NCBI GenBank assembly: GCA_025617375.2
Contig: JAMYGW020000004.1
Coordinates: 1,984,001-2,048,000, forward strand
Length of the DNA: 64,000 nt
Direction of reading: 5' to 3'
DNA from: Acarospora socialis
Taxonomy: Eukaryota > Ascomycota > Lecanoromycetes > Acarosporales > Acarosporaceae
The position numbers and the translations under genes were made by a program. Below the pieces are notes generated by a model that worked only from the letters and a program-made list of their open reading frames with translations, searched no databases and had not been told where the DNA came from. Positions 1 to 50,750 of the stretch are shown one piece after another; the stretch's first letter is position 1, and each line of letters begins with the position of its first letter.

Positions 1-470
1 TATTAAAAAGTAGTGAAGCACAATTTCAACAATTTGATTGATTCACTCAGACTGTTTATCAGTCTGCAGATGATAGACTGTGAAAGTAAGTAACTTAGTG
101 CTCAGACTTTCAAAGATAGTTTGTGAGAACAACAATAAGAACTTTTTATTGTGATCACTGATGATCTGTTGAGATATGCTTCAATTATGACTGATAAGTT
201 CTGAAAGCAAGACATTCACTTGCTTTACAGCAGTATAGATAGATTTATCAGATAGAAGTAACACCTGCTTTGTAAACTTATCTGTGACTGTAAAAATGTT
301 ATTGAATTAATCTGAATTGACTGGTGATAAGATGAGAATAAAATTCATGATAATAGTGTGAAATAATATCAACAATGTCAATATAAGATGTAGAGCTCTG
401 TAAGAAGCATAATACTTTATTTGATTAATATTGCATTCAGAGCAATGCAGAATATAGATTTTTAAAAAAT
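1..470 (-). mobile_element. Ty3/gypsy-like integrase remnant (fossil), cut by the window edge
   Basis: The - strand reading has the spacing of the region around a retroelement integrase zinc-binding domain, with CSEC and the following basic/aromatic stretch, running into the start of the catalytic core toward position 1. It is broken and heavily mutated, so it is old. It stops where LINE copy 1 begins. Family assignment is by pattern only; another integrase-bearing retroelement is possible. Confidence 0.5.
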
Positions 471-1793
471 AAGAGAGGGTAGAAAACCACAGAACCACAA
501 CCAAACCAGCTATCAAAATTCTGAATAGAGCAAATTCTTCATCTCATTCACTTTCATAAACTCTCAAAACAGCTTATCTTCATCATCAATACTGGTGGTG
601 AGGGACCTCAATTACCATTCTCCCAAAATTTTTCGCATACCTCCTCCCAAAAAACCAAAACAACATTTCAGACATCAACATCACCACAACCAATGTGTCT
701 TCAAAAATTCTGAATCAACAGTTTTCTTCACCTTGATCTCTTCTAAAATTCATACTATTACTGCTTTTTGATATCTTTATTGCTCACAAAGTTGTTGGAC
801 TGTTTAGTTGTACCCCTTAGTATCTAGTTTTTGAAGTTCGCAAATTTTCGCTTAATTTTCCTAGCTTGCTTGGCAGAATTTCTGCGCACCAAGCATCACC
901 AGACACCTCAACTAAGCCTCACTCACACCAAAACACCAAAAACACCAAAACAACCAAGAAAACACCAAAAACACCACTTTTACGCCAACTACGCAGCAAT
1001 TCCAGCCTATACACACCAAGCCACATCAATTCACGCATCATACAACATACCTACATAGCTCTACCATCAAAACAAGCTAGTTTATCAACAAAATCGACTA
1101 CTTTTCAGCTATTTTCGCTCAAAAACCAGCGTTTCAGGTCAAATTTCTAAGCGTTACAGGCTGAATTACACCAAATCGCTCAATTCCAGCAACTGCACGC
1201 AGTTTCCGCAAAAACTAGCCGCAAAATAGCCATTTCTTGACGGATTTAGCTGGAATTTGAGCATTTCTTCTGTCAATTGATTAGCGTTTTGCGTGCAGAA
1301 AGAACCTACCAGTGGAGACATACCCTACACTAGAAGCATCTCACAAAGACCTAGTGAAGAGTATAAGCAGGTAGCTATTTTCTAGCCCTACCTGCTGGTA
1401 AAAGCTCAGACTGGCAAACAATGTTGTCTGAGTAGTTGGGATATAAATATGAGGCTCCACGTGGAAATCTTGCCCTAGACGCATCTGCCCCAAGATCTAG
1501 TGATTGAGTGACTTATAGTATAGTCTTGCTTATAGTAGAGCTGGTAAAAGCCTATTGTAGAGTTTATCTACTCTAGGTGAATTGGGATATTAAGCAACAT
1601 CTGGATTAGACAATTGGGTACAGCCTATTCTAGATGAAATAAGGATCCAAAGCTTCTATAATCTAGAACCTCAGGAAAATCTAGTTTTTACCTTCAAAAA
1701 CTAGATAATTACTGCTAGACATAGACCTTCTGGACCTGGATTTGGATAGGATTTTGGATTTGGACAGGACGGACCCCAAAAACACCTCATATC
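471..1793 (+). other. LINE copy 1 5' UTR / internal promoter region
   Basis: This 1.3-kb stretch precedes ORF1 and is nearly identical, inverted, to 19572-20895. It keeps more CG and CC than the surrounding fossils, in keeping with a younger element. Small ORFs in it (for example 831-1058) also occur in the other copy but look like chance reading of a CA-rich tract. LINE promoters are internal in this family, so the promoter should lie here; I see no defined motif. Confidence 0.6.
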
Positions 1794-3383
1794 ATGACTT
1801 TTGCACTGGATTCCAGCAACTTCATGCAAGATTTCAACCTAGAAAACCCAAAAACACCTAAAAAACAACAAAAATCACCAAAAACAGCACTTCCACAACT
1901 CTTTATAAGTTCACCAGACCTGTTGGGATCACAAATCACCATGAAACCTTCTCAAAAGACTATTCTAAAGTCTAAAAAGAGAAGAGTCATTGCCAGTCCA
2001 GTACTAGAAGCTATTTCTTCTGATGAAGAATCAAATCAGCATGAAACTCATCATGCAAACTGCACAAACCTACACCCAAAAAGCCAAAATGGTGACAAAC
2101 TACTTCAACAAGCTAGAAACTACCTCAAGCAAGCTATTCAGCAATTCACAAACTCCATAGTTCAACAAGAACTAGAAACTAGCATCAAGACACTGAATCA
2201 AGCAAGACAAAATGCAAATCTAGACTCACTCAAACAGTCAGATGAAGCATTTCATCAGAAACTAGATGTTCAACAACAACTAGACAGCTTCAAAGATGAA
2301 GTCAACATCAAACTAGACAAAATTCTTCACACAATGTCTAAAACAAAGTCAGAAACCACAGAGAAATCAGCATTTGTCTTTCAGACAAACAAAACAAACC
2401 CTATCAACTTTGTACAGACAAACAAAACCAGCTTTGGACAACCAACATCAACAAAAACAGCCAAATCAGCTACATATGCATCAATTGCAAGCAGCAAAGA
2501 CCAAAATGCTCAAAACTCATGGACAACTGTTCAAAAAAAAGCACCAAAGCCAAAAGTAGTGAATAAACTCACTACTTTCAGAGAAAGACGTCTAGTTATG
2601 AAGTCAAAAACACCCACAACTACTATCAATGCCATAGACATGCGCAACAAAATCAACAACGCACTTAAAACAGCAAAAATAGACAATTTGCTGGTTTTCA
2701 CAGTTGCTATTTCACAATCCAAAGCTAGTATAGTGCTCACAACCAGTGAAGACACAGCAGAAGACTTGCTAAAACATCAACAAATCTGGAATTCATCATC
2801 TGAATTCATAGAAATCAAAAAGAATGAAAAGTGGTACAAAATAGTAGCACATGGAATTCCCACAGCTATTTTCAATGGCAAAGAAGGCATGCAACTAGTC
2901 AAAGATGAAGTAGAAACCTTCAATAAAGACATTAAACTAGCTGTTCTACCACACTGACTTACCTCAGAAGAAGCCAGACAAGAAAAACTGCATGGTTCTA
3001 TTGTTTTGACTGTCAAATCAGAACAAGAAATTCAGAAACTACTCAGAAACAGACTGATAATAGCTGGAACATCAGTCAGAACTGCAGTTTACAACACATG
3101 CAAGCCAACAGATCAATGCAGAAAGTGTCAGAAATTTGGACATTTGCAAACTGTATGCAAAAACAAAAACACTTGTCAATTCTGTGCAGAAAACCACAAT
3201 ACTAGAGAACATGACTGTTTTCTTTGTCCCACACAGTCAAAAGGAACCACTTGCGCACATATAGTCTATAAATGCAGCAATTGTGGTGAGAAACATCAAG
3301 CAAATAGTGCAGAATGCAGTGTTTTCAAAGCACTACAGCCTATTTCTTCAACAGCAGATCCACTATCTATGAAAATGTCATGA
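1794..3383 (+). pseudogene. LINE copy 1 ORF1 (gag-like, zinc-knuckle protein)
   Basis: This is a nucleic-acid-binding gag-like protein of a Tad1-clade LINE, 529 codons plus stop in one frame. The N-terminal two thirds are basic and Gln/Lys-rich. The C-terminal end carries a CX2CX4HX4C knuckle (CRKCQKFGHLQTVC), then two more Cys/His clusters (CQFC... and CSNCGEKH...). One in-frame TGA at 2955-2957 replaces the TGG present in copy 2; copy 2 in turn has its own TGA where this copy has TGG. The ORF1 stop overlaps the ORF2 start as ATGA (3380-3383), an arrangement suited to stop-restart translation. Confidence 0.88.
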
Positions 3384-6300
3384 ATAACACAACAAATTCA
3401 TCACAAATCACCATTCTACAACACAACTGTGCAAGATCTATGAATGTCATGTACTCATGTCTGAATTCAGCTACAAAAACTGCAGACATAGTTCTTCTTC
3501 AAGAACCATGAGTTGCAAGAGACAACAAAATCACTATTTCACATCCATCTTTTACTAGTTTGATACCCACATCTAATCTAGATATTAGACCTAGAACTAT
3601 GGCATTTGTGTCTAAAACTAAACAAGATTTAGTGTGTATACCAAGACCTGACTTGTCAAAAGACTCAGATTTGCAAATACTCAGTATTTCAGCAAATGGA
3701 ATTTCTAGTATACTGTTACTTAATATATACAATGAAAAGTCACAGCAAATCAACAATGATCAATGGACCATAGACAGATGTTTAACAGCAATTCAACTAC
3801 CACAAAGAGCTATTATCTGTGGGGATTTTAATGCACATCATGCATGGTGGAATTCATCAATAGAAAACTCTATAAGAGCTACTTCTTTGATAAACTGACT
3901 AGAAATTCACAACTGTGAACTGTTAAACACACCAGACATCAATATCTACACTCATTACTCAGAAAATTCAACTTCAGTGATTGATTTAACATTTGCAACA
4001 TCTTTACTTTGCAATTTCACAAGAAACTGGCAAGTAAAGCAAGATATGGAGTCTGGATCAGATCATGAAGTTATTCAGTTTGAATTAACTGCAAATGAGT
4101 CTGAATGAGTTGAAAGTCTACTGAGTGCATCATACAACATAGGCAAAGCAGACTGGGTTAAATTTGCAGAAACACTGCAAATAAACTCAACACAAGCTGG
4201 TACTCAAATTCAAAGCTTAATGCAAACACCATCAAACCAAAATCTAGAAGAAATAGCTATTTCTCTTAGAAATTTGATAGCAAATGCAGCAGATCTGCAT
4301 ATACCAAAGAGAAAACTCTGCTCAAAAGCTAAAGTATGGTGGTCTGAATCATTATCAGTACTTAGAACTGAAATGAGTGGTTTTAGAAGATACTGAAAAC
4401 ATCACAAATCACAAGAAAACTGGAATCAATTCAGAAATGCAAGAAATAGATACTTTCATGCAATTCAGAAAGCCAAACATATCTCATGGACTACTTTTCT
4501 GCAAGGTGCAGCTGGAAAAGATGTTTTTACAGCATATCATTACACTAAACCACGAAAAATAGAGAAAACACCTCCTATAAAGCATGAAAACAAAGTGGGA
4601 CTCACATTTAAAGACAAATGTGACTTGTTTCTTGAAGCTATGTTTTCAAAATCACCTCAAACAAGTTCAGTTAAGCTAGAATGTGATAATAGTCTCACAA
4701 AACCATGGTTTTCAGTCATTTCTAAGGAAATAAAACAAGCTATTATGACTTCATCAACAAAGAAAGCACCTGGGCCAGATGGATTGTCCTTTTTGATAAT
4801 TCAACATGCATATCAAGCTATATCTGAGTTATTTCACACTGTTTATTCAGTTTTAATAAATCAAGGCTATCATCCAGTATGCTGGCGTCAAGAAACTGGT
4901 GCAATTCTGAGAAAAGAAGACAAAGCAGACTACTCAATACTCAAAGCATATAGACCAATCACTCTACTAAATTGCTTGGGCAAAATATCTGAAAAGATAA
5001 TGACAACAAGACTTTCCTATTGGGCTGAAACCACAGACTTGCTATATCATGAGCAAATGAGTGGTAGAAAGCAAAGATCAGCTGTGGATGCAGCTATGTG
5101 TTTAACACATGACATTCAACAAGCAATCAACAACAACAAAGTCTTGACAGCTTTATTCCTGGATGTTAAGGGTGCATTTAACTATGTGTCTTTAAATCAA
5201 CTGCTAAAAGTCATGAAAAGACTACATTTACCACAAACTGTACTAAAATGGGTGCAATGCTTTCTTACAAATAGAACAATTGCTCTAGCTTTTGATGGTG
5301 AAAAGAATCACCCACAAAGTGTCAATTCTGAAATTCCACAAGGATCACCTATATCACCAATGCTATTTTTGATCTATATGTGATTTCTATTCACAAAAAT
5401 CAACAATAAACACACTCAACTAAAGCTACCAAGCTATATTGATGATGTGGCTATTATTGTGGAAGGAAAAACAGCTGCAGACAACAGCAAAACATTAGAA
5501 TCAGTCACAAAAACTGCATTTCAATGGGCTGAAGAAAATGCAGTTATATTTGATGACAGCAAGTCAGAACTCATTCATTTTCAGAAAGAAAATCAAGCTA
5601 TATCAACAGTAAAACTACCAAATAACACTGTTATACATCCTTCTAAAGTTGTATGCTGGCTAGGTGTTTGGTTTGACACTAAAATGTCTTTTAAGATACA
5701 TGTGCAAAAGAAAATAGCTTCTGCAACTAGAACATTGCATTTACTGCATAGACTGATGAATTCTGAATGGGGTTTATCAACATCAGCTGGAAAACAGCTG
5801 TACACAGTCTGCATCACATCTATAAGTGACTATGGAAGCCCAGTATGGTGGAAACAACAAAAGAATTTTGAAAAGCTGTTTCAAAAACTTCAAAATTCAG
5901 CAACTAGAAAAATTCTAGGTGCATTTAGGTCTTCACCATCAGCTGCTATGGAGCTAGAATCAGCTATATTATCACTCAGATTTAGACTTGATCAAAAAAC
6001 AGAGCTATATGCTTTAAGAATAGCTACTTTGTCAGAAAATCATCCAATTAGACAAAGAACTCCATACACCTACCCACCAGGACTTGAAACTGGATGTGAT
6101 ATTGATGAAGATCATTATCTTGACTGGAATCAACATTCAAACTCTCTCATTAAGAAGAAACACCCAACTCAGTTGATTAAAGTGCTATATAGCATTTGCA
6201 AATATCTATCAGAAACACTAAATTTGGAGGTTTCAACTCAAAATGAGTTATGCTGTGCACCTTGAAGTGTTTCACCAAACATAGACATTCAAATCAGCAA

Positions 6301-7255
6301 ATCTGACAAGAAACTAGCTACTTTGAAACATCTAAAGAAATTAGAAACACTTGTTTCTAAAGAAACTAGAGCAAGAAATGCTATTCTATACACAGATGAG
6401 TCAAAACTAGATGAAAATCTAGGTGCAGGTCTTTGCTACATGTATAAAGATATTATACATCAACAATCTTGAAATCTAGAAACCACCATGGAAGTCTATG
6501 AAGCTGAATTGTTTGGAATTTCACAGTCTTTGAAGTTAAGTCTCAAAGAAATCATGAAATATCAAAGAATCAAAGACATATGGATCTTTTCAGACAATCA
6601 AGCAACTATACAAAGAATTCAAACCACAAATCAAGGATCTGGACAGCATCTAGCTATTAAATGTCAAGAAACTCTTCAAAAACTCATAGATTATGAAGTT
6701 ACACCTCATATTCATTGGGTCCCTGAACATGAGAACATTAAAGACAATGAAATAGCAGATAAAGCTGCAAAATCAGGTGCAAAGCAGTCAATTTCACCAG
6801 ATATTGATAGATTTACATCTATTAGCTATATCAAACACAAAATCAAGGCCAAAGCACTGGAAAACTGAACCACCCACTGAAAAAAGACAACTCAAGGAAG
6901 ATACTATGCTCAGTTTGATCAAACACCTAGTTTTCACATCAAAGAAGATCTGAAAAGTGCAGACAGACTTTCATTTGCTACTTTCACACAAATGAAACTA
7001 GGTCATGGCTATTTCAAAGCACATCTGCATAGATTACCAGACTATAACAGCAAGAAATGCAATGGTGCATGCAACAAAGATCAAACTCCAGAGCATTTGT
7101 TGACAGCCTGTCAATATAACAAAAAGGAGCAAACTGAGCTGAAAAATCAGCTCAGAAACATCAATTTGCCATATACAGCAAAGGTGCTGTTTACTACCAA
7201 GGAAGGAATCAAAGCTACTTTGCTGTTTTTGAAAAAAAATCAAAGTAGCTACTAG
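3380..7255 (+). pseudogene. LINE copy 1 ORF2 (endonuclease, reverse transcriptase, RNase H)
   Basis: This is one frame of 1291 codons plus stop. In order it shows an APE-type endonuclease (ILQHNCARS near the start, GDFNAHH near 3830), a reverse transcriptase (AYRPITLLN, IPQGSP, and YIDD near 5440), an RNase H (YTD near 6395, SDNQ near 6590, DNEIADKAA near 6755) and a CX3CX7HX4C motif near 7060. Nine in-frame TGA codons break it and there is no frameshift. Six of them (3896, 4106, 4394, 6470, 6866, 6878) also occur in copy 2 at positions that look like tryptophans; 3509 and 6263 are TGG, and 5381 is CGA, in copy 2. Confidence 0.92.
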
Positions 7256-7496
7256 AAAATGGTTATTAGGAGAAGTTGAGGGTGAAGATGAGATTTAGAA
7301 AAGAAAAAAGATATTGATTGACAATCAGCATCAGATTGACTGAACAGAAGTGATCAAAAAGCATTCAGATTGATTATTCACATGTACAAGATTTTGAGTT
7401 TTGTTTTGTGTTTACATCTTTCACTATATGTCTATTAACTGCCATAGCTTTTATAGCTGCATGCATAGAATGAAGAATAAATAAATAAATAAATAA
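7256..7496 (+). other. LINE copy 1 3' UTR and (AAAT)n tail
   Basis: The 3' UTR ends GAATGAAGAATAAATAAATA followed by further AAAT units. A segment around 7335-7370 (GACTGAACAGAAGTGATCAA) and this tail are shared with the SINE copies at 12184-12655 and 23769-24000, which marks the likely reverse-transcriptase recognition end. Confidence 0.85.
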
Positions 7497-7507
7497 AATC
7501 TATTCAC
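7497..7507 (+). repeat. 11-bp target-site duplication, half A (displaced)
   Basis: AATCTATTCAC lies directly after the tail of LINE copy 1. The same 11 bp, in LINE orientation, lies directly before the 5' end of LINE copy 2 (20896-20906, reverse strand). A duplication normally flanks one element, so the split is best explained by an inversion of the interval between the LINEs. Confidence 0.8.
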
Positions 7508-7732
7508 TATCATCAATATGCTGTTGAATCTTACTTTTCATGCTGAATTCTTTGACAGTGATAGCTTCATAATGAAGTTCATGATAACTGACTTTCATGA
7601 TGTGTTTAATGCATTTAGTTGTGTTACTTCATCATATTGTTTATTTTGATTGATCTTGTTTCTTTGACATGAATTGCACACAGTGATCATTTTGATGATT
7701 CAATTTCTAAAATTATTAATGTTGCATCTTCT

Positions 7733-9300
7733 TCACACTAAATTCTCAGTGCACTTAACTTTTAAGTGTTCACCAGCTCTGTTGTAGTGACACATTTTAA
7801 TGAGTTCTTTGTTCATCAAGAAAGCTTGCTCTATCTTGTATATTGCTGCTAAGTCTTTCATGAGAACTTCTTTGTTGTCTTTGCTCAGAATTTCAATGTG
7901 TATTGTCTGTACATCTTCATGATCAGGTTGTCTACTCAAAGTGTTTACTTCATTATTTTCATTATTTTTCTTGTAATGAATCTGATTTTCATAGTCTGTC
8001 AACTGTTCTGCTCAATGAATCTGTTATTGATTAAGTTGCTTTGTTGTTGCAAAGTTTCTCAGATTCTTGTGATCTGTATAGATCTGAATTGATTTGCTTA
8101 TTTTTGTGAAATAAGATCTTCAATCTTGTAGTGTCTTCACTATTGCAAGAAGTTTCTTATCATGAATCTCATATCTTTTCTTAAGTTCTGATAACTTTCT
8201 AAATTAATATGCTATGAATCTTTGCTGTTCATTCTCAATCTGATACAAACATATTTTTACTGCAAAATCTGAAGCATTAGTTTTCAATGTTTTCTCACAT
8301 GCTGAATTGAGTATTCTCAGGTGTGCTGTTTCACTAAGACTTTTCTTTAATATGTAAAATGCATTCTTCTGTTCTTGATCTCAATGTTATTTTTTGCTTT
8401 TGCATGTCAAATGTGTCAGTGATTTCACAATTCTTGCATAGTTTGATACAAACTTTCAATAGTAGTTTGTCAATTCTAGAAAGACTTGTACTTTCTTGAT
8501 TCATTTTGATGTTGATCAGTTTCTGACTGCTTTTATCTTCTTTGAATTCTTCTTGATTTATTCAGGTTGAATTACATAATCTAGAAACTCAATTTTCTTG
8601 ATTTCAAATCTGCTTTTTGACTTTTTCATGTACAGAGCTCTCTCATTGAGTCTTGCTAATATCTTTTGCACATGTTCACAGTGCTGTTCAAGATCTTCTG
8701 AGTATATCAGAATATCATTGAGATATGTGATCACAAAGTCATTGAGATATTCTCTCAACATATTATTGATTAATCTTTGAAAGATGACTGAAACATTTTT
8801 TAGTTCAAACAGCATAACAGTGTATTCATAGTGTTCATATCTTGTTCAGAATGTCATCTTTCACTTTTTGTCTTCTTTCATTCTAACTCAGTAGTAGACA
8901 TTCTTAAGATCTAAGCTTGTGAATCATTTAGTCTTGTTTAATCAGTCTTGCAACTCTTCTATCAGTGATAGAGAATAATTATCTCAATGAGTTATCTCAT
9001 TGAGTTGTCTATAATCAACACATAGTCATTTCTTGTCATTCTTCTTCAATATGAACAGAATCAAATATCTCACTGATGATTTTGATGATCTTATGAATTT
9101 TCTTTTAAGATTCTTGTCAAGATAAGTTTTAACTTTCTTGAGTTAATTCTCACTCATTGAGTATAAAGACATTCACTTAGATTGCTTTTCATTCAATAGT
9201 GATATTTCATGATTTCATGACTTATACTCTGATAAGCTCATTTCTGATTATTTAGAAATCTTGTATGTGTCTTTAACTGCACATATTTCTTTTGTAATTC
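7733..9300 (-). pseudogene. Ty3/gypsy fossil: reverse transcriptase and RNase H region
   Basis: The - strand shows the finger/palm core of a Ty3/gypsy reverse transcriptase around 8560-8815, including a YxDD-type active-site box, followed downstream by RNase H and the connection leading to integrase (about 7733-8000). It is a multiply broken fossil. Limits are approximate. Confidence 0.75.
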
Positions 9301-10399
9301 AATCAATTCTTAAATTTCTTCTACACAATCAGAACATTTTTAGTACTGCATTGTATCTGATTGATTTCATAACATCAAACATTATCTTTTGTGAATTTTC
9401 AAGAATTGAGACTTTCACACAGATTTTCTCATTGATTCTTTCAATGACTTCATTTATCATTTGTATGTTGAATGAACAGCACACTCACTGTGTCACTAAT
9501 CTCAACATGTTGACTATTTATCAACTCATGATGTTGCTGTCTACTCTAAAATTCATCAATGCATTGATTTGATATTCATTAATTATGATCTTAATTCATA
9601 TCTGATGATTATTGTTCTGTCTTTGAGACATCACTAGCTTCTTATTCTCTAGTCTTGTTGAGAAAGTTCTTTGTTTTTTGACTCACTTGATCACTCAACT
9701 CATCTTCAAAGTTCTTAAAATCATTTTGATTCTCTTTCAACCATAAGATTCACATACTTTAGACTATATTGCTCAATGTGTTTTTCTGAGTGTAGTTGAG
9801 ATTCATACTGATTGTACTTCATCTGCAACTGACTTTCAAAGACTTTTATTCTTTGCAAAAATTCAGATGATATATATTCTTCACTGAAGATTCATCTGTC
9901 TTCATTCTGTGTGATATACTCTTCAGATAAGTGTATCTTGATCTTGTGACTTTTAGTCTTTTACACAAGAGATTCTGATATTGGTTCTTTCATAATTGTT
10001 TGTATGTTTTTCATTAAATCATCAAATTCTTTGCATATCTCTGCTTTCTGATCTTGAGTTTTTTGTTTTTTCTTCAGCATCTTCTTGCTGACTAATGCTG
10101 CTTTTCTTTGAGCACTTAGATCTTTCTCAATCTTTATTTAATATCTCTTTGAGAGTTCTGTCTCAGCATTGTTCAAACTTTCTTTTGTGAGTATATCACT
10201 ATCAGAAAATATTCAAGATTTATCAATCTGAGATTCATGATCATCAGTTTCTTTGATGTCATCTTTGAGAATATTGTCTTCTTTCTCAGCATCAAGAACT
10301 CTTTTCTTGATAAGAATAGCTAATTCTCTTTTGTAAGTTGATTGATTCATTGTGTTGTATCTGTTTCTCACATCTTTGTGTGATTTCTGAAGATATTAT

Positions 10400-11490
10400 T
10401 TGACTTTATCTTTTGTGCTCATATGTACTTTGCACATGTCATCATAACAGACTGTTTAGTTGAAAGTGTCATGCACTATGTGTGTATTCTTCTTGACTGT
10501 CACTGCAATGTTTTTTCTTTTCATTTGAGATCTGTTGCATTCTTAAGCAAGGTGTTTGAGTTTTCTGCAGTTGTAACATGTTTATATCTTGTTACACAGT
10601 GTTATCTGAGACTTAGTGAATCACTCTGACTGACATTCATACTTCATTTATTTAGTTCTTCATGACTTCTGACAGCACTTCTTAATTGTATTGAGATTCA
10701 TAAAGTCTGTTCTTCTATGTCTTATTGATGAAATGTATTGCTTCACTCATGATCAAAAGCTTTCTTCTTGATCTTCTATCATAAATGATATTCAATATTT
10801 TTTTTGTTTCATCTGTTGTTCTCACTGATAACTGTTGATATTAATACTCAAATTAATCATTCTCTAAAGATTGTCTGATTGTTCTGCTTAAGCTATTTTG
10901 TCTTTGATGAACTTTCTCAATTCACAATAGTACTGATAAATGAGTGCTTCATCATTTCATCTGATAAGTGCTGCTAACTGCTGAAATTTTATGACATATA
11001 CTGTTGCTGATTCACTCTGTCACAAAATGTAAACTTATTTCTCAGCTGCTCTTTCTTCATTGATTACTCTGAAAGCTTTTCTTAACTTTTTTTTAAACTG
11101 TGTGTAGTCATTGAACATAGACTTCATGTCTGTGTTGTGTTCTTTGTACTTCTTTTCTAGAAACTCATGCAGCTTGAGATTGACTCAATTGAAAGCTGCA
11201 TTCACAAGATAAATTGTTGTAAACAGTGTCTTTTCTTGATCAGTTTGAAACTTTAATTGATTAAATTCAATGTACAGATCAAGCTTAGCCACAAAGACTT
11301 GCAGCTTTTCTCTCTCTTCATCAAAGATATCTGGTATCTGTATCTTAGATGCACTCAAAGATAGTTGTATCATTGAGACTGACATTGCTGATTGTGCTGC
11401 TGCTCTATCTGAAGTAAATAGTAGAGATGAATTTGTCTGAGCTTGTTTCAAAAACAAAGTTGAGATGTTCTTCTGTGTGTCAGACATCAT
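10400..11490 (-). pseudogene. Ty3/gypsy fossil: gag region
   Basis: An open stretch of about 100 codons begins at 11490, just inside the 5' LTR, where gag should start. Further along, near 10540-10580, there is a zinc knuckle of CX2CX4HX4C type, as in gag nucleocapsids. The region is broken and old, and the end of gag is not defined. Confidence 0.65.
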
Positions 11491-11518
11491 ACTTGTTATA
11501 TTGTAAGAGTGTTCAAAG

Positions 11519-12655: not shown

Positions 12656-12669
12656 AACAACAAGAACAT
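12656..12669 (+). repeat. SINE target-site duplication, right
   Basis: AACAACAAGAACAT is an exact repeat of 12170-12183 and follows the (AAAT)n tail directly. Confidence 0.9.
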
Positions 12670-13860: not shown

Positions 13861-14109
13861 ATTATTTATTTATTTATTATTTATTTATTCTTCATTCTAT
13901 GCATGCAGCTATAAAAGCTATGGCAGTTAATAGACATATAGTGAAAGATGTAGACACAAAACAAAACTCAAAATCTTGTACATGTGAATAATCAATCTGA
14001 ATGCTTTTTGATCACTTCTGTTCAGTCAATCTGATGCTGATTGTCAATCAATATCTTTTTTCTTTTCTAAATCTCATCTTCACCCTCAACTTCTCCTAAT
14101 AACCATTTT

Positions 14110-17100
14110 CTAGTAGCTACTTTGGTTTTTTTTCAAAAACAGCAAAGTAGCTTTGATTCCTTCCTTGGTAGTAAACAGCACCTTTGCTGTATATGGCAAA
14201 TTGATGTTTCTGAGCTGATTTTTCAGCTCAGTTTGCTCCTTTTTGTTATATTGACAGGCTGTCAACAAATGCTCTGGAGTTTGATCTTTGTTGCATGCAC
14301 CATTGCATTTCTTGCTGTTATAGTCTGGTAATCTATGCAGATGTGCTTTGAAATAGTCATGATCTAGTTTCATTTGTGTGAAAGTAGCAAATGAAAGTCT
14401 GTCTGCACTTTTCAGATCTTCTTTGATGTGAAAACTAGGTGTTTGATCAAACTGAGCATAGTATCTTCCTTGAGTTGTCTTTTTTCAGTGGGTGGTTCAG
14501 TTTTCCAGTGCTTTGGCCTTGATTTTGTGTTTGATATAGCTAATAGATGTAAATCTATCAATATCTGATGAAATTAACTGCTTTGCACCTGATTTTGCAG
14601 CTTTATCTGCTATTTCATTGTCTTTAATGTTCTCATGTTCAGGGACCCAATGAATATGAGGTGTAACTTCATAATCTATGAGTTTTTGAAGAGTTTCTTG
14701 ACATTTAATAGCTAGATGCTGTCCAGATCCTTGATTTGTGGTTTGAATTCTTTGTATAGCTGCTTGATTGTCTGAAAAGATCCATATGTCTTTGATTCTT
14801 TGATATTTCATGATTTCTTTGAGACTTAACTTCAAAGACTGTGAAATTCCAAACAATTCAGCATCATAGACTTTCATGGTGGTTTCTAGATTTCAAGATT
14901 GTTGATGTATAATATCTTTATACATGTAGCAAAGACCTGCACCTAGATTTTCATCTAGTTTTGACCCATCTGTGTATAGAATAGCATTTCTTGCTCTAGT
15001 TTCTTTAGAAACAAGTGTTTCTAATTTCTTTAGATGTTTCAAAGTAGCTAGTTTCTTGTCAGATTTGCTGATTTGAATGTCTATGTTTGGTGAAACACTC
15101 CAAGGTGCACAGCATAACTCATTTTGAGTTGAAACCTTCAAATTTAGTGTTTCTGATAGATATTTGCAAATGCTATATAGCACTTTAATCAACTGAGTTG
15201 GGTGTTTCTTCTTAATGAGAGAGTTTGAATGTTGATTCCAGTCAAGATAATGATCTTCATCAATATCACATCCAGTTTCAAGTCCTGGTGGGTAGGTGTA
15301 TGGAGTTCTTTGTCTAATTGGATGATTTTCTGACAAAGTAGCTATTCTTAAAGCATATAGCTCTGTTTTTTGATCAAGTCTAAATCTGAGTGATAATATA
15401 GCTGATTCTAGCTCCATAGCAGCTGATGGTGAAGACCTAAATGCACCTAGAATTTTTCTAGTTGCTGAATTTTGAAGTTTTTGAAACAGCTTTTCAAAAT
15501 TCTTTTGTTGTTTCCACCATACTGGGCTTTCATAGTCACTTATAGATGTGATGCAGGCTGTGTACAGCTGTTTTCCAGCTGATGTTGATAAACCCCATTC
15601 AGAATTCATCAGTCTATGCAGTAAATGCAATGTTCTAGTTGCAGAAGCTATTTTCTTTTGCACATGTATCTTAAAAGACATTTTAGTGTCAAACCAAACA
15701 CCTAGCCAGCATACAACTTTAGAAGGATGTATAACAGTGTTATTTGGTAGTTTTACTGTTGATATAGCTTGATTTCCTTTCTGAAAATGAATGAGTTCTG
15801 ACTTGCTGTCATCAAATATAACTGCATTTTCTTCAGCCCATTGAAATGCAGTTTTTGTGACTGATTCTAATGTTTTGCTGTTGTCTGCAGCTGTTTTTTC
15901 TTCCACAATAATAGCCACATCATCAATATAGCTTGGTAGCTTTAGTTGAGTGTGTTTATTGTTGATTTTTGTGAATAGAAATCGCATATAGATCAAAAAT
16001 AGCATTGGTGATATAGGTGATCCTTGTGGAATTCCAGAATTGACACTTTGTGGGTGATTTTTTTCACCATCAAAAGCTAGAGCAATTGTTCTATTTGTAA
16101 GAAAGCATTGCACCCATTTTAGTACAGTTTGTGGTAAATGTAGTCTTTTCATGACTTTTAGCAGTTGATTTAAAGACACATAGTTAAATGCACCCTTAAC
16201 ATCCAGGAATAAAGCTGTCAAGACTTTGTTGTTGTTGATTGCTTGTTGAATGTCATGTGTTAAACACATAGCTGCATCCACAGCTGATCTTTGCTTTCTA
16301 CCACCCATTTGCTCATGATATAGCAAGTCTGTGGTTTCAGCCCAATAGGAAAGTCTTGTTGTCATTATCTTTTCAGATATTTTGCTCAAGCAATTTAGTA
16401 AAGTGATTGGTCTATATGCTTTGAGTATTGAGTAGTCTGCTTTGTCTTCTTTTCTCAGAATTGCACCAGTTTCTTGACGCCAGCATACTGGATGATAGCC
16501 TTGATTTATTAAAACTGAATAAACAGTGTGAAATAACTCAGATATAGCTTGATATGCATGTTGAATTATCAAAAAGGACAATTCATCTGGCCCAGGTGCT
16601 TTCTTTGTTGATGAAGTCATAATAGCTTGTTTTATTTCCTTAGAAATGACTGAAAACCATGGTTTTGTGAGACTATTATCACATTCTAGCTTAACTGAAC
16701 TTGTTTGAGGTGGTTTTGAAAACATAGCTTCAAGAAACAAGTCACATTTGTCTTTAAATGTGAGTCCCACTTTGTTTTCATGCTTTATAGGAGGTGTTTT
16801 CTCTATTTTTCGTGGTTTAGTGTAATGATATGCTGTAAAAACATCTTTTCCAGCTGCACCTTGCAGAAAAGTAGTCCATGAGATATGTTTGGCTTTCTGA
16901 ATTGCATGAAAGTATCTATTTCTTGCATTTCTGAATTGATTTCAGTTTTCTTGTGATTTGTGATGTTTTCAGTATCTTCTAAAACCACTCATTTCAGTTC
17001 TAAGTACTGATAATGATTCAGACCACCATACTTTAGCTTTTGAGCAGAGTTTTCTCTTTGGTATATGCAGATCTGCTGCATTTGCTATCAAATTTCTAAG

Positions 17101-17985
17101 AGAAATAGCTATTTCTTCTAGATTTTGGTTTGATGGTGTTTGCATTAAGCTTTGAATTTGAGTACCAGCTTGTGTTGAGTTTATTTGCAGTGTTTCTGCA
17201 AATTTAACCCAGTCTGCTTTGCCTATGTTGTATGATGCACTCAGTGGACTTTCAACTCATTCAGACTCATTTGCAGTTAATTCAAACTGAATAACTTCAT
17301 GATCTGATCCAGACTCCATATCTTGCTTTACTTGCCAGTTTCTTGTGAAATTGCAAAGTAAAGATGTTGCAAATGTTAAATCAATCACTGAAGTTGAATT
17401 TTCTGAGTAATGAGTGTAGATATTGATGTCTGGTGTGTTTAACAGTTCACAGTTGTGAATTTCTAGTCAGTTTATCAAAGAAGTAGCTCTTATAGAGTTT
17501 TCTATTGATGAATTCCACCATGCATGATGTGCATTAAAATCCCCACAGATAATAGCTCTTTGTGGTAGTTGAATTGCTGTTAAACATCTGTCTATGGTCC
17601 ATTGATCATTGTTGATTTGCTGTGACTTTTCATTGTATATATTAAGTAACAGTATACTAGAAATTCCATTTGCTGAAATACTGAGTATTTGCAAATCTGA
17701 GTCTTTTGACAAGTCAGGTCTTGGTATACACACTAAATCTTGTTTAGTTTTAGACACAAATGCCATAGTTCTAGGTCTAATATCTAGATTAGATGTGGGT
17801 ATCAAACTAGTAAAAGATGGATGTGAAATAGTGGTTTTGTTGTCTCTTGCAACCCATGGTTCTTGAAGAAGAACTATGTCTGCAGTTTTTGTAGCTGAAT
17901 TCAGACATGAGTACATGACATTCATAGATCTTGCACAGTTGTGTTGTAGAATGGTGATTTGTGATGAATTTGTTGTGTTATTCAT
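14110..17985 (-). pseudogene. LINE copy 2 ORF2 (endonuclease, reverse transcriptase, RNase H)
   Basis: This is the 1291-codon counterpart of 3380-7255 with the same domains: endonuclease near 17.5-17.9 kb, reverse transcriptase with AYRPITLLN, IPQGSP and YIDD at about 15.9-16.6 kb, RNase H at 14.5-15.0 kb and the terminal CX3CX7HX4C near 14.3 kb. Only the six TGA codons shared with copy 1 interrupt it. No frameshift was seen. It is inactive as read with the standard code. Confidence 0.92.
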
Positions 17986-19571
17986 GACATTTTCATAGAT
18001 AGTGGATCTGCTGTTGAAGAAATAGACTGTAGTGCTTTGAAAACACTGCATTCTGCACTATTTGCTTGATGTTTCTCACCACAATTGCTGCATTTATAGA
18101 CTATATGTGCGCAAGTGGTTCCTTTTGACTGTGTGGGACAAAGAAAACAGTCATGTTCTCTAGTATTGTGGTTTCCTGCACAGAATTGACAAGTGTTTTT
18201 GTTTTTGCATACAGTTTGCAAATGTCCAAATTTCTGACACTTTCTGCATTGATCTGTTGGCTTGCATGTGTTGTAAACTGCAGTTCTGACTGATGTTCCA
18301 GCTATTATCAGTCTGTTTCTGAGTAGTTTCTGAATTTCTTGTTCTGATTTGACAGTCAAAACAATAGAACCATGCAGTTTTTCTTGTCTGGCTTCTTCTG
18401 AGGTAAGCCAGTGTGATAGAACAGCTAGTTTAATGTCTTTATTGAAGGTTTCTACTTCATCTTTGACTAGTTGCATGCCTTCTTTGCCGTTGAAAATAGC
18501 TGTGGGAATTCCATGTGCTACTATTTTGTACCACTTTTCATCCTTTTTGATTTCTATGAATTCAGATGATGAATTTCAGATTTGTTGATGTTTTAGCAAG
18601 TCTTCTGCTGTGTCTTCACTGGTTGTGAGCACTATACTAGCTTTGGATTGTGAAATAGCAACTGTGGAAACCAGCAAATTGTCTATTTTTGCTGTTTTAA
18701 GTGCGTTGTTGATTTTGTTGCGCATGTCTATGGCATTGATAGTAGTTGTGGGTGTTTTTGACTTCATAACTAGACGTCTTTCTCTGAAAGTAGTGAGTTT
18801 ATTCACTACTTTTGGCTTTGGTGCTTTTTTTTGAACAGTTGTCCATGAGTTTTGAGCATTTTGGTCTTTGCTGCTTGCAATTGATGCATATGTAGCTGGT
18901 TTGGCTGTTTTTGTTGATGTTGGTTGTCCAAAGCTGGTTTTGTTTGTCTGTACAAAGTTGATAGGGTTTGTTTTGTTTGTCTGAAAGACAAATGCTGATT
19001 TCTCTGTGGTTTCTGACTTTGTTTTAGACATTGTGTGAAGAATTTTGTCTAGTTTGATGTTGACTTCATCTTTGAAGCTGTCTAGTTGTTGTTGAACATC
19101 TAGTTTCTGATGAAATGCTTCATCTGACTGTTTGAGTGAGTCTAGATTTGCATTTTGTCTTGCTTGATCCAGTGTCTTGATGCTAGTTTCTAGTTCTTGT
19201 TGAACTATGGAGTTTGTGAATTGCTGAATAGCTTGCTTGAGGTAGTTTCTAGCTTGTTGAAGTAGTTTGTCACCATTTTGACTTTTTGGGTGTAGGTTTG
19301 TGCAGTTTGCATGATGAGTTTCATGCTGATTTGATTCTTCATCAGAAGAAATAGCTTCTAGTACTGGACTGGCAATGACTCTTCTCTTTTTAGACTTTAG
19401 AATAGTCTTTTGAGAAGGTTTCATGGTGATTTGTGATCCCAACAGGTCTGGTGAACTTATAAAGAGTTGTGGAAGTGCTGTTTTTGGTGATTTTTGTTGT
19501 TTTTTAGGTGTTTTTGGGTTTTCTAGGTTGAAATCTTGCATGAAGTTGCTGGAATCCAGTGCAAAAGTCAT
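17982..19571 (-). pseudogene. LINE copy 2 ORF1 (gag-like, zinc-knuckle protein)
   Basis: This is the counterpart of 1794-3383 at the same length of 1590 nt. It reads 331 codons to a TGA at about 18576-18578, where copy 1 has TGG, then stays open to the zinc-knuckle C terminus (CRKCQKFGHLQTVC). Substitutions against copy 1 include several CC-to-TC changes (for example Pro to Ser near the C-terminal end). It overlaps the ORF2 start by ATGA. Confidence 0.88.
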
Positions 19572-20895
19572 GATATGAGGTGTTTTTGGGGTCCATCCTG
19601 TCCAAATCCAAAATCCTATCCAAATCCAGGTCCAGAAGGTCTATGTCTAGCAGTAATTATCTAGTTTTTGAAGGTAAAAACTAGATTTTCCTGAGGTTCT
19701 AGATTATAGAAGCTTTGGATCCTTATTTCATCTAGAATAGGCTGTACCCAATTGTCTAATCCAGATGTTGCTTAATATCCCAATTCACCTAGAGTAGATA
19801 AACTCTACAATAGGCTTTTACCAGCTCTACTATAAGCAAGACTATACTATAAGTCACTCAATCACTAGATCTTGGGGCAGATGCGTCTAGGGCAAGATTT
19901 CCACATGGAGTCTCATATTTATATCCCAACTACTCAGACAACATTGTTTGCCAGTCTGAGCTTTTACCAGCAGGTAGGGCTAGAAAATAGCTACCTGCTT
20001 ATACTCTTCACTAGGTCTTTGTGAGATGCTTCTAGTGTAGGGTATGTCTCCACTGGTAGGTTCTTTCTGCACACAAAACGCTAATCAATTGACAGAAGAA
20101 ATGCTCAAATTCCAGCTAAATCCGTCAAGAAATGGCTATTTTGCGGCTAGTTTTTGCGGAAACTGCGTGCAGTTGCTGGAATTGAGCGATTTGGTGTAAT
20201 TCAGCCTGTAACGCTTAGAAATTTGACCTGAAACGCTGGTTTTTGAGCGAAAATAGCTGAAAAGTAGTCGATTTTGTTGATAAACTAGCTTGTTTTGATG
20301 GTAGAGCTATGTAGGTATGTTGTATGATGCGTGAATTGATGTGGCTTGGTGTGTATAGGCTGGAATTGCTGCGTAGTTGGCGTAAAAGTGGTGTTTTTGG
20401 TGTTTTCTTGGTTGTTTTGGTGTTTTTGGTGTTTTGGTGTGAGTGAGGCTTAGTTGAGGTGTCTGGTGATGCTTGGTGCGCAGAAATTCTGCCAAGCAAG
20501 CTAGGAAAATTAAGCAAAAATTTGCGAACTTCAAAAACTAGATACTAAGGGGTACAACTAAACAGTCCAACAACTTTGTGAGCAATAAAGATATCAAAAA
20601 GCAGTAATAGTATGAATTTTAGAAGAGATCAAGGTGAAGAAAACTGTTGATTCAGAATTTTTGAAGACGCATTGGTTGTGGCGATGTTGATGTCCGAAAT
20701 GTTGTTTTGGTTTTTTGGGAGGAGGTATGCGAAAAATTTTGGGAGAATGGTAATTGAGGTCCCTCACCACCAGTATTGATGATGAAGATAAGCTGTTTTG
20801 AGGGTTTATGAAAGTGAATGAGATGAAGAATTTGCTCTATTCAGAATTTTGATAGCTGGTTTGGTTGTGGTTCTGTGGTTTTCTACTCTCTCTTT

Positions 20896-20906
20896 GTGAA
20901 TAGATT
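20896..20906 (-). repeat. 11-bp target-site duplication, half B
   Basis: On the - strand this reads AATCTATTCAC and lies one base upstream of the 5' end of LINE copy 2. It is the partner of 7497-7507. Confidence 0.8.
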
Positions 20907-20979
20907 AATCAAGTACACAATGTTCATTTCATTCAAAGAAATCACAACAGCATCAGTATTGACATACATCATACTGCAA

Positions 20980-21800
20980 GAATTGATTAGCAATTACAGA
21001 CTATCAAAAGAATTTATCATCAACAGAGACAAGCTGTTTACAAGCAAGTTTTGAGAAATGCTCACAGCAGAACTCAAAATAAAGTATAAGATGTCAACAG
21101 CATATTATTTACAGACAGATGAGCAGAGCAAATGAATGAATCAGACAGTAAAAATGTACTTGAGACACTATGTCAGCAAAAGTCAAGACAACTGAATATG
21201 ACTGTTGCTGATGACACAGTTTGCATACAATAACACAAGAAATGAAATCACAAGAGAAATGTCTTTCTATGTGAACTATGACTACAACTCAAAGATATGA
21301 CAAGATTTCAAAGAACATGAATCACAGAGTCAAAAAGCAATTCTAGATATTGCTCAGATGAAGAAACTGTATCAAAATCTAATGAAATGAATCAAACAGC
21401 AGACAGAATGAATGACAGAGACAAGACTATTTGAGAAAGAAGAAAAGATATATCTAAAAATGAACAATATAAGAACTAAAGAAAGAAGCAAGAAGCTGAA
21501 AAACAAGAGTATTGAATCATTCAGAATCATATGAAACATCAAGAAATTAAGTTATGAGTTAGATTTACTCAAGAAAATGAGAATACATTCAGTATTTCAT
21601 GCATTCATGCTACAGCACTGCAATCAGTTCATATTACTTCAAATCAATGAAACACATGTTGAACTCAACAAAGAATACAAAGTCAAGAACATTCTAAAAA
21701 AGAGAATGATTAATGAGAAAGTTCACTATCTCATCAAGTGAAAAGATTACAATATTTCAGAGAATATCTGAAAATTCAGAGAGAATCTCAAGAACTGTGT
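20980..21800 (+). pseudogene. Ty3/gypsy fossil: integrase region, possible chromodomain end
   Basis: The reading shows the later half of an integrase core (a YxxQTDxQ-type stretch near 21100 and a FAYN-type stretch near 21225) and a C-terminal tail whose last part (about 21.7 kb) resembles a chromodomain. It is a multiply broken fossil with approximate limits. Confidence 0.7.
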
Positions 21801-22230
21801 GAGAACACTTCAACATTTTTAGAAAAAAAGTCAATATTAGTTCAGAAGAATGATGACATGAAGTTAACAAGTTGCAACATTGTTTGAGAATCTTCATTCT
21901 CAGTCTCATCATTATCACTATCAAGTTCAGCAACAAGACAGTCAGTCTTCTGTGAAGCACAGTGATTCATTTGATTCAGTGTTTTCTGAAGACATATGAC
22001 TTTTGAGAAAAGTGCAGCAAGCTCAGTGTGCTTGACTGTCAATTTGCTGTTTGCTTTACTTATTTTCTTATGAAGCAAAAGATGAGTTCTATTGAGAGAC
22101 TTTCACAATACATTGACACATGAATGATCACAACAAGTACACTTATTGCATTTCAGTCAAGATTTCATTACAAAACAGTTGATGCTGCAACAAGCACAAT
22201 AGTCACAAGAAAATAAGATGAGCACATCAT
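21757..22230 (-). pseudogene. Antisense accessory reading frame between integrase and 3' LTR
   Basis: On the - strand, opposite to the element, there is a coherent reading with a Cys-rich start (CNKCTCC, near 22.15 kb), then a Lys/Leu/Ala heptad-like region likely to form a coiled coil and an acidic end (LDSDNDETENED). Extra antisense ORFs in this position are known from some plant gypsy elements, and short Cys-rich plus coiled-coil frames are common in fungal repeats, but I cannot name a function. It is broken, like the rest of the element. Confidence 0.45.
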
Positions 22231-22360
22231 CAATCTGAATTTTCTTTGCAATTCTTAGATGATTTGAGTTTTTAGAAAGCATCATTGCTGACAACAAACA
22301 ATGTGAATATTCTCACTTATATAAATTCTAGAGAACTAGCATCTGAGAAGAAAAGAATAA

Positions 22361-22712
22361 TGTTATGATTAAGTTGAGATGAGCTTAAAGCAGACTGATA
22401 TGTACACAGAAAGAGTGTACATCTGGGAAAATGTTAGACAGCAGTCATGTGACATCTTGACATGCTTGATGATGAGCTTGGTGAGCAAGCTTGATGAGTT
22501 GCATGAACAAGTCATCTCAATGAGCTCAATGACAAGGTCAGTGAGCAGACTTAGTATATAGTCACAGTCATTTCTCTTATGAAAAGAATCATGTTCAACT
22601 TAAGTAATCATCTAAAAGTTAAAGACCAGAACTGTTTCAGACCAGTCATTATATCAATAAGCACAAACTCTTAGCTCTACATACTCAAGAAATCTCAGAT
22701 TAAAATGTTACA
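22361..22712 (+). repeat. Ty3/gypsy 3' LTR (352 bp)
   Basis: This is the partner of 11519-11870, with the same length, the same TG...CA ends and no apparent indels. It is followed by AGATG, the near match of the AAATG next to the 5' LTR. Confidence 0.85.
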
Positions 22713-23768
22713 AGATGAGTCTGATGAATTCAGTGAGTCAGTTTGATGTGTCATTAAAACTCTAACTATGATCTATTCAATTAACTGATCTAGTTGTTTC
22801 TGAGTCATAGTAATGAAATTATTATTCAGTAAATTGTTCAACATGTTAAACTCAATGTCAAAAAACTGATTTAATGATACTTCAGAAGATAGACTAAAGT
22901 CATAAATTATCTTTTTAATGAAACTAAATGAACATCATTCTTCAGACTGATATAAAGAAAATGAGATTGAGATAGAGATCTGTGAAATATTAAATTTGTG
23001 ACATTCATTAAATTGAGTGATCTGTCAATAATTCTTAATAAGTGTTCAAAGTCTCTTCACTGTACAGTTGTAGTCAGACTGATTAAGAACAGTATTGAGT
23101 ACTGATAGTGAACTAGATTTAGCTGATTAATGAGTAATGATGTTGATAAGATTTTAATTCAATGAATATAGCTTATCTAAATAGATAAAGTCTTGTCTGA
23201 TTAGTTCAACAAGTTGTTAGATGAATACAATAACATTATGAAGTGAATTCAGAGTAAGATAGATAGACATTAACAGCTCAATGAATTGAGAATGTCAATA
23301 AGAACTAAGTAGATTTGACAAAATAAATGAGTCAAGAAGATAAATAAGAAATAAGACAAGATAAAGTAACAAAACTGTCAACTGATCTACTGATCTAGAA
23401 TAATGAGATGAATATGAACAAGAAACAAACAAATAAAATAAAGACAACAATGTGATCATAACTCAATCTGAAGAATCTGATAGATTCATGACAATTAATG
23501 ATGTTGAGAATCTAGATGTGACAAATGATGAATCAATAATTGTTGTCATCATGATGAAGCTGTTGATGCTATCAAATTGCTATGCTCATAGACATGAGTG
23601 TGAAAGTGAAAGAAGAATGATATTTTCTAAGCTATGAAATCAGCTAGATATAGATGAGAAGTAAGCTTATAAGTAAGATGAATCACATGTTGTCAGCAAT
23701 CTAGTCAGCAACATCATGAGTGACTTTGTCAGCAACTTCATCAACAATCTTTAGTTACTAGTCATAAC
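22713..23768 (+). other. AT-rich decayed sequence, probably retroelement debris
   Basis: No intact gene is present. Broken + strand readings from about 23.15 to 23.65 kb are Lys/Asn/Gln-rich and look like a worn gag-like region, but no motif supports a family. CC, GG and CG are nearly absent. Confidence 0.35.
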
Positions 23769-24000
23769 AGCATCAAATCTCAAATTTTCTTAACTATTAA
23801 TCACTGAGACCCACAATCAGATTGACTGTTCAGAAGTGATCAATAAGCAATTAGAATTATCAGAATAAATCTGTAATTCATATATCATACATATGAATTG
23901 TCAGAATAAATCTGCATATTCAATAAATATATTTATCACAAGTCATTATAGTGCATGTTTGCTGATATAGACTATAAAAGAAAGAATAAATAAATAAACA
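23769..24000 (+). mobile_element. SINE copy B, 5'-truncated
   Basis: From ATCAAATCTCAAATTTTC this copy follows SINE copy A (from about 12418) through the shared AGAAGTGATCAATAAGCAAT segment, the repeated TCAGAATAAATCTG motif and an AGAATAAATAAATAAA tail. The tRNA-like head is missing, as after incomplete reverse transcription. No clear target duplication was found. Confidence 0.7.
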
Positions 24001-24318
24001 CAGACTGTTAATAAGCATTGTTAAGTGAGAATCTATAAGTATGAGACTTCTTTGCATATAAAATTCTTTAGAGATTAGTTTTGACATCAATGAAGATATA
24101 TTGTGTTGTTTTATCATCAAATAGTCTGTGCATTGTCATATCTCACACTATCATAAATCTATTCTAGCAATCTATACTTGGTGGTAGGTATTGAGACTTA
24201 CAAATTTGTTGTAAAAGTCTTTAACAGTCTGCTTTATATAATCTTACAAGCAAGAAATAAAACTCTCAAGTAACTGCTGTTTAACATCATAATATGCTAG
24301 ATTTTTTATGAATTGATA
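24001..24318. other. AT-rich spacer at the compartment boundary
   Basis: There is no gene here. It should hold the 3' UTR of DAL3. Base composition switches to the balanced level of the gene-bearing half within a few tens of bases of the DAL3 stop codon. Confidence 0.5.

Positions 24319-46961: not shown

Positions 46962-49605
<2,644 letters not shown>

Positions 49606-49965: not shown

Positions 49966-50750
<785 letters not shown>

What the first reader, a model, noticed from the sequence alone, without database searches (positions are those of the whole stretch)
1..24318. Hypermutation of transposons at CpC and CpG instead of the classical CpA of RIP
In the oldest repeats CC, GG and CG are almost absent while CA and TG stay common. 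Comparing the two LINE copies base by base, of about two dozen differences I read, all but two or three are CC to TC (GG to GA) or CG to TG; examples in copy 1 lie near 2699, 2957, 3190, 3511, 3532, 4979, 5058 and 5332. Classical ascomycete RIP prefers CpA to TpA. Every stop that breaks the LINE ORFs except one is TGG to TGA, as CpC targeting on the other strand predicts. This suggests a genome-defence mutator with a different sequence preference.
Basis: partly seen in the sequence, partly recalled or inferred. Interest (0 to 1): 0.88.

Follow-up and report, generated by a model that had tools for sequence, protein, structure and literature searches.

The report
CpC/CpG-targeted transposon hypermutation in a fungus
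Transposons in this fungal DNA have lost nearly every cytosine that stood before a C or a G, a real repeat-mutation pattern almost opposite to the textbook one, but the same two targets have already been reported in the fungus Coccidioides.

Summary
The two 7,018-nt LINE copies differ at 49 sites: 48 transitions, 1 transversion. By 3' neighbour, C was lost at CpC 33 of 351, CpG 9 of 64, CpT 4 of 950, CpA 2 of 1175. The LTR pair of an older Gypsy element has 50 transitions and no transversion; where the context is unambiguous, CpC changed at 5 of 7 sites, CpT 12 of 56, CpA 6 of 56, and no CpG survives. The oldest 10.3 kb keeps 0 CpG and 40 CpC, 31 of them ACC, so a 5' A protects. Adjacent gene-bearing DNA is normal. 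Simulation fits CpG and CpC near saturation, some CpT, no CpA. In the LINEs CpS change is about 710 times the transversion rate, against mere decay of methylated cytosine. Best reading: RIP-like hypermutation with nearly the inverse of the Neurospora preference. [quoted passage not shown] Common CpA-based RIP criteria flag none of this block. Host and enzyme were not testable.

The parts
471..7488 (+). LINE copy 1, non-LTR retrotransposon (endonuclease, RT, RNase H), 7,018 nt, ends in a TAAA-type tail
   Evidence: inverted repeat, 99%; Pfam Exo_endo_phos_2, RVT_1, RNase_H; tail
13877..20894 (-). LINE copy 2, same element, opposite orientation; 49 differences from copy 1
3308..7252 (+). LINE ORF2 of copy 1 (my delimitation); its internal stops are all TGA (6 shared with copy 2, 3 private to copy 1)
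7489..11870 (-). 5' part of an old Gypsy element: gag-like DUF4939 about 11379-11113 (weak, below cut-off), RT about 9031-8576, RNase H about 8290-7991, integrase zinc domain about 7810-7652
   Evidence: Pfam with X at stops; stops
20895..22712 (+). 3' part of the same Gypsy element: Tf2-1-like SH3 about 21442-21621, chromodomain about 21676-21828 (weak, E 0.0038, below cut-off)
   Evidence: that it continues the 5' part is inferred from domain order and the inverted LTR pair
11519..11870 (-). 5' LTR (TG...CA), 352 nt
22361..22712 (+). 3' LTR, 352 nt, 86% identical; 50 of 50 differing bases are transitions
12418..12645 (+). old relic resembling the LINE 3' end (copy a)
23771..23998 (+). old relic resembling the LINE 3' end (copy b)
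7497..7507 (+). AATCTATTCAC in the 3' flank of copy 1, partner of the 11-mer at 20896-20906 (exchanged target-site duplication, inferred)
20896..20906 (-). AATCTATTCAC in the 5' flank of copy 2
24411..64000 (.). gene-bearing DNA with normal CC and CG: internal control (ureidoglycolate lyase, Sec23 and others)
25258..25679 (.). short inverted repeat (arms 117 and 114 nt, 85%) that keeps many CC and some CG, but whose arms differ by CpS-biased transitions (CpC 7 of 20, CpG 2 of 6, CpT 1 of 13, CpA 0 of 9) and by 6 transversions

Best explanation
This is a repeat-targeted, RIP-like hypermutation of cytosine to thymine on both strands. The target is read mainly from the 3' neighbour: CpG and CpC are converted to near completion, CpT slowly and CpA least, and a 5' A partly protects CpC. 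Shown in this window: the substitution type, its context, near-saturation in the old copies, normal composition of the adjacent gene-bearing DNA, and, for the LINEs, a rate far above transversion. Inferred: the agent is a DNA cytosine-methyltransferase-type enzyme (RID/Masc1 or DIM-2 class) acting on duplicated DNA with a changed target preference. Also inferred: the fungus is Coccidioides or a close relative in the Onygenales, where CpG plus CpC repeat mutation is already reported.
For: LINE pair: CpC 33 of 351, CpG 9 of 64, CpT 4 of 950, CpA 2 of 1175, contexts unambiguous. LTR pair: 50 transitions, 0 transversions; unambiguous contexts CpC 5 of 7, CpT 12 of 56, CpA 6 of 56. CpS change in the LINEs about 710 times transversion (127 to 28,000). 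Composition fit over 1,296 rate combinations best at CpA 0, CpC 0.97, CpG 0.999, CpT 0.25 (KL 0.002), against 0.66 for CpA only and 0.52 for a Neurospora-like order. The 6 private LINE stops are all TGA. Adjacent DNA normal. ACC protected in LINEs and old DNA. The Coccidioides review names CpG and CpC; TE G+C of 28-39% there, 28.0-37.6% here.
Against: No mutator gene, cross or genome-wide count could be examined. Only one repeat pair (the LINEs) gives a fully unambiguous tally. In the LTRs no CpG survives, so 'CpG 20 of 20' is inferred from discordant sites, and 18 of the 23 unambiguous LTR changes are CpT or CpA. A 117-nt repeat in gene-bearing DNA also shows CpS-biased transitions but with 6 transversions, as slow decay would give. 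Private LINE changes show no strand runs, unlike a single round of Neurospora RIP as I recall it. LINE CpG loss is mostly shared, so an earlier CpG process may have acted. TGA is the commonest stop in all three frames of the old DNA, so its excess there is only partly informative. Host identity rests on composition and signature.
Confidence: 0.77

Rival explanations
1. Passive decay: heterochromatic repeats are methylated at CpG and CpC, and 5-methylcytosine deaminates spontaneously over long times, with no active mutator.
For: CpG is the fastest site per base; no strand runs; LINE CpG loss is largely shared and old; the short 117-nt repeat has CpS-biased transitions (9 of 26 sites) beside 6 transversions in 117 columns, an excess of only about sevenfold.
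Against: CpS change is about 710 (at least 127) times the transversion rate in the LINEs, and the LTRs have 50 transitions to 0 transversions. Passive 5mC decay raises CpG transitions by a few tens of fold at most (recalled). CpC, which is not a symmetric site, is hit almost as hard as CpG.
Confidence: 0.15
2. An APOBEC/AID-like deaminase acting on single-stranded DNA or retrotransposon cDNA.
For: C-to-T on either strand; retroelements are the targets identified here.
Against: Such enzymes choose by the 5' base (recalled). Here the 3' base gives the strongest effect (CpC 9.4%, CpG 14%, CpA 0.2%), while rates by 5' base range from 1.3 to 2.3%. Both strands are hit: 12 plus and 13 minus events in copy 1, 10 and 13 in copy 2.
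Confidence: 0.04
3. The composition was inherited: the elements come from a CpG- and CpC-poor source, and no mutation took place here.
For: LINE CpG O/E of 0.12 is shared by both copies, with no adjacent TG/CA discordance between them. So the LINE source was probably already CpG-poor.
Against: Changes private to one copy are CpS in 42 of 48 transitions. In the LTR pair, 6 of 12 adjacent double differences are TG against CA, as expected at former CpG sites mutated on opposite strands.
Confidence: 0.03
4. Classical CpA-preferring RIP, or UV-type dipyrimidine damage.
For: C-to-T transitions in repeats.
Against: CpA 2 of 1175 in the LINEs; TA O/E in the old DNA is 0.53-0.75, not raised; KL 0.66 for CpA only. 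Against UV: TCA and TCT, preferred UV sites (recalled), are the commonest surviving cytosine contexts in the old DNA.
Confidence: 0.01

Closest known systems
Repeat-induced mutation at CpG and CpC in Coccidioides (genome study of ten C. immitis and ten C. posadasii strains, cited as [120] in PMC9409882; recalled as Neafsey et al. 2010)
   Same: Same two target dinucleotides in repetitive DNA; TE G+C 28-39%
   Different: Only one sentence of a review was seen; the original is not held. I cannot say whether rates, the ACC effect or the CpT/CpA order were reported there. Host identity of this window is unproven.
Neurospora crassa RIP (RID-dependent)
   Same: C-to-T on both strands of duplicated DNA; stops in ORFs
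   Different: Preference CpA>CpT>CpG>CpC (as quoted in PMC5496416), nearly the reverse of the order here
Trichoderma reesei RIP
   Same: Repeat-targeted C-to-T, CpG used strongly
   Different: CpC is the least used there (passage)
CpG-type signatures in Microbotryum, rusts and Tuber (Amselem et al. 2015, PMC4352252)
   Same: CpG to TpG in transposons
   Different: That survey of 10 genomes reports CpA, CpT and CpG signatures; the term CpC does not occur in its main text
DIM-2-dependent mutation in Zymoseptoria tritici (PMC8016269)
   Same: Methyltransferase-dependent C-to-T in repeats
   Different: Mutations are at CA, though CG is the most methylated site (passages)

Membership tests
RIP (repeat-induced point mutation) | C:G to T:A transitions, on both strands | tested here: met
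   48 of 49 LINE differences and 50 of 50 LTR differences are transitions, on both strands; the 129-nt relic pair has 2 non-transitions
RIP (repeat-induced point mutation) | Limited to duplicated DNA | tested here: met
   Depleted block holds LINE and Gypsy copies (parts of it unidentified); 24411-64000 normal. Window only, no genome-wide test
RIP (repeat-induced point mutation) | CpA preference (classical form) | tested here: not met
   CpA 2 of 1175 against CpC 33 of 351; 0 windows of the block pass CpA-based criteria
RIP (repeat-induced point mutation) | Length threshold of a few hundred bp | tested here: inconclusive
   A 117-nt repeat keeps many CC and CG, but its arms differ by CpS-biased transitions (9 of 10) and 6 transversions
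RIP (repeat-induced point mutation) | Dependence on RID/Masc1 or DIM-2 | not testable with these tools
   No genome held
RIP (repeat-induced point mutation) | Acts before meiosis in a cross | not testable with these tools
   Needs progeny
Coccidioides-type CpG/CpC repeat mutation | CpG and CpC are the affected dinucleotides | tested here: met
   against the statement read
Coccidioides-type CpG/CpC repeat mutation | TE G+C 28-39% | tested here: met
   28.0-37.6% per 2 kb over 1-24000; paper passage
Coccidioides-type CpG/CpC repeat mutation | Host is Coccidioides | not testable with these tools
   No eukaryote sequence collection; PDB hits for Sec23 and OGT name the molecule but no organism
APOBEC/AID-type editing | Choice by the 5' base | tested here: not met
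   rates by 5' base 1.3-2.3%, by 3' base 0.2-14%; within CpC a 5' A does matter (7 of 153 against 26 of 198)

The most novel reading that the evidence does not exclude
The mutator is a RID- or DIM-2-class (or other) enzyme whose recognition has switched to [C/G/T]pCpS, nearly the inverse of Neurospora, with the 5'-A exclusion as a second determinant; and CpA-based surveys have missed a whole class of strongly mutating fungi.
Probability: 0.3. Interest if true: 0.6.

Novelty: already known. Interest (0 to 1): 0.38.

Why it matters
It is a clean case in which the target preference of a repeat mutator can be read quantitatively, and it is almost the mirror image of Neurospora. Comparing the responsible enzymes could show what sets the preference. 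It also exposes a practical blind spot: CpA-based RIP indices score this block as less RIP-like than the neighbouring genes (composite -1.07 and -0.98 in the old regions, -0.36 in host DNA), so surveys built on them could call such fungi RIP-free. The main text of the van Wyk 2021 survey does not mention Coccidioides or Onygenales (supplements not seen).

Tried and rejected
No genome is held for the window; laying the file and the own-genome search both failed. Relatives of the LINE RT and of the Gypsy RT in viral contigs, and of the LINE RT in prokaryote genome contigs: none found. PDB comparison gave no taxonomic resolution. No tRNA by ARAGORN with the bacterial code; one snoRNA hit. The strand-run test found no clustering. 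I first read the 117-nt repeat as spared; the tally shows that it is not clean, and the report was changed (confidence 0.80 to 0.77, passive decay 0.12 to 0.15). Rejected as main process: CpA-type RIP, UV damage, APOBEC-like editing and inheritance alone, for the reasons given under rivals.

Literature: ten searches. Several lists were cut (31 of 33 papers, 15 of 34, 30 of 304, 40 of 48), and I opened only some of the papers listed (7 of the 31). Among what I saw, only led to a CpC-plus-CpG report, the Coccidioides review. Two originals, recalled as Clutterbuck 2011 and Neafsey 2010, are not held and were not read. I make no claim that the 5'-A effect or the rate order is absent from print.

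What I saw of papers. Passages only: PMC5602860, PMC2621366, PMC5555474, PMC12542154, PMC7882544, PMC5496416, PMC4014442, PMC4522978, PMC6300479, PMC8016269, PMC3017866, PMC9409882. Abstract and passages: PMC4352252, PMC5872316. All others: search listings with the start of the abstract.
Full report
What is there. The window has two parts: an AT-rich block, 1 to about 24,400 (28.0-37.6% G+C per 2 kb over 1-24000), and gene-bearing DNA (50.8% G+C) to its end. The block holds two inverted LINE copies, 471-7488 and 13877-20894, each 7,018 nt, with endonuclease, reverse transcriptase and RNase H domains. It also holds an old Gypsy element. Its LTR, a weak gag-like match, RT, RNase H and integrase zinc domain lie on the minus strand, 11870-7489. 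A Tf2-1-like SH3 domain, a weak chromodomain match (below Pfam's cut-off) and the second LTR lie on the plus strand, 20895-22712. Two relics, 12418-12645 and 23771-23998, resemble the LINE 3' end. The rest of the block, including 1-470, is unidentified.

The LINE pair. There are 49 differences: 48 transitions and one A/T transversion. By 3' neighbour of the lost C, out of all C on both strands: CpC 33 of 351, CpG 9 of 64, CpT 4 of 950, CpA 2 of 1175. In all 48 the 3' neighbour is the same in both copies. CpS against CpW gives an odds ratio of 39.8, P = 7e-28. Both strands are hit: 12 plus and 13 minus events in copy 1, 10 and 13 in copy 2.

The LTR pair. The two 352-nt LTRs, identical at insertion by the usual model, differ at 50 bases, all transitions. 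With C taken as the older state, the counts are CpG 20 of 20, CpC 12 of 15, CpT 12 of 56, CpA 6 of 56. This tally leans on inferred neighbours: neither LTR keeps any CpG, so CpG sites are seen only where the copies disagree. Counting only changes whose 3' neighbour is the same in both LTRs leaves CpC 5 of 7, CpT 12 of 56, CpA 6 of 56, so by number 18 of 23 are CpW although per site CpC is by far the fastest. Of 12 adjacent double differences, 6 are TG against CA, the mark of a CpG mutated on opposite strands; the other 6 are GT/AC, GA/AG or TC/CT types. The 129-nt relic pair is too small to weigh: CpC 3 of 4, CpA 2 of 20, CpT 1 of 13, no CpG sites, 2 non-transitions.

Saturation. In 10,264 bases of old DNA there are 0 CpG and 40 CpC (both strands), against 1,705 CpA and 1,338 CpT. 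Of the 40 surviving CpC, 31 are ACC (host 1306 of 4815; P = 5e-11). In the LINE pair ACC was hit 7 of 153 times, other NCC 26 of 198 (P = 0.009). So a 5' A protects.

Stops. The 6 stops private to one LINE copy are all TGA (5 from TGG, 1 from CGA). The 6 shared ones within ORF2 are all TGA too; I count ORF2 as 3308-7252, and the shared stops just before it (TAG, TGA, TAA, TGA, TAG) as lying between the ORFs. In the Gypsy pol frame there are 21 TGA, 6 TAA and 0 TAG over about 630 codons, and in the frame of the 3' part 10 TGA and no other stop over the first 900 nt. As a control, TGA is also the commonest stop over the whole 6.4 kb in each frame of that strand (108 of 162, 100 of 183, 106 of 200), so the Gypsy stops are only partly informative.

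Simulation. Applying C-to-T by 3' neighbour to 20 kb of host DNA over 1,296 rate combinations, the best fit to the old DNA is CpA 0, CpC 0.97, CpG 0.999, CpT 0.25 (KL 0.0021, G+C 0.289 against 0.301 observed). CpC plus CpG alone gives 0.007, CpC only 0.094, CpG only 0.124, no mutation 0.243, a Neurospora-like order 0.517, CpA only 0.659. It assumes that the elements began with host-like composition.

Rate. CpS sites in the LINE pair changed at 0.101 per site, transversions at 0.00014: a ratio of 710 (127 to 28,000, from the interval on one event). With 50 to 0 in the LTRs this argues for active hypermutation, not slow decay of methylated cytosine (typical excess recalled, not measured here).

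Results against a simple story. The LINE CpG shortage (O/E 0.12) is shared by both copies, and no adjacent TG/CA discordance exists between them, so it arose before they separated or was evened out by exchange. In the private changes CpG exceeds CpC only 1.5-fold, so a separate earlier CpG loss is possible. No strand runs were found. A 117-nt inverted repeat in the gene-bearing part has CpS-biased transitions between its arms (CpC 7 of 20, CpG 2 of 6, CpT 1 of 13, CpA 0 of 9) with 6 transversions: either the mutator also touches short repeats, or a slower CpS-biased decay exists in this genome.

Comparison with print. N. crassa is quoted as CpA>CpT>CpG>CpC, and T. reesei also has CpC last (passages). 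A ten-genome survey lists CpA, CpT and CpG signatures, and CpC does not occur in its text. [quoted passage not shown] I recall the original as Neafsey et al. 2010 and its abstract as announcing a RIP process unlike that of Neurospora; it is not held. Host identity is an inference: signature and TE G+C fit Coccidioides or a close relative, at perhaps 0.6; that the genes look like those of filamentous ascomycetes is my recalled impression, not a test.

Blind spot. With common thresholds (product over 1.1, substrate under 0.75, composite over 0; recalled), 1 of 127 windows of 1 kb is called RIP-positive, and it lies at 61501 in gene-bearing DNA; none lies in the mutated block.

Verdict. Observation confirmed; interpretation supported. 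The kind is already reported, so the value here is the quantification, the 5'-A effect, the rate argument and the demonstration that CpA-based indices miss it.

Noticed in passing
7489-20906: The 3' flank of LINE copy 1 and the 5' flank of copy 2 share the 11-mer AATCTATTCAC, and the Gypsy element appears to continue from one flank to the other in inverted orientation, with near-matching 5-bp ends (AAATG/AGATG). Recombination between the inverted LINE copies may have flipped the segment between them, or the assembly did.
   Followed up: partly
25258-25679: A 117-nt inverted repeat, 85% identical, in gene-bearing DNA keeps many CC and CG, yet 9 of the 10 transitions between its arms are CpC or CpG, beside 6 transversions.
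   Followed up: partly
471-7488: LINE CpG shortage (O/E 0.12) is common to both copies and strongest in ORF2 (3 CpG in 3,947 nt) while the 5' 1,254 nt keep 23, as if the source lineage had already been through or adapted to the mutator.
   Followed up: partly
50899-51072: snR80-like H/ACA snoRNA, 41.6 bits against a gathering score of 40.
   Followed up: no
61501-62500: The only 1-kb window that passes CpA-type RIP criteria lies in gene-bearing DNA; probably chance.
   Followed up: no
24319-24410: The last CpG-free stretch overlaps the 3' end of the ureidoglycolate lyase reading frame, so the border of the mutated block runs into or just up to the gene end; no wider leakage is visible.
   Followed up: partly
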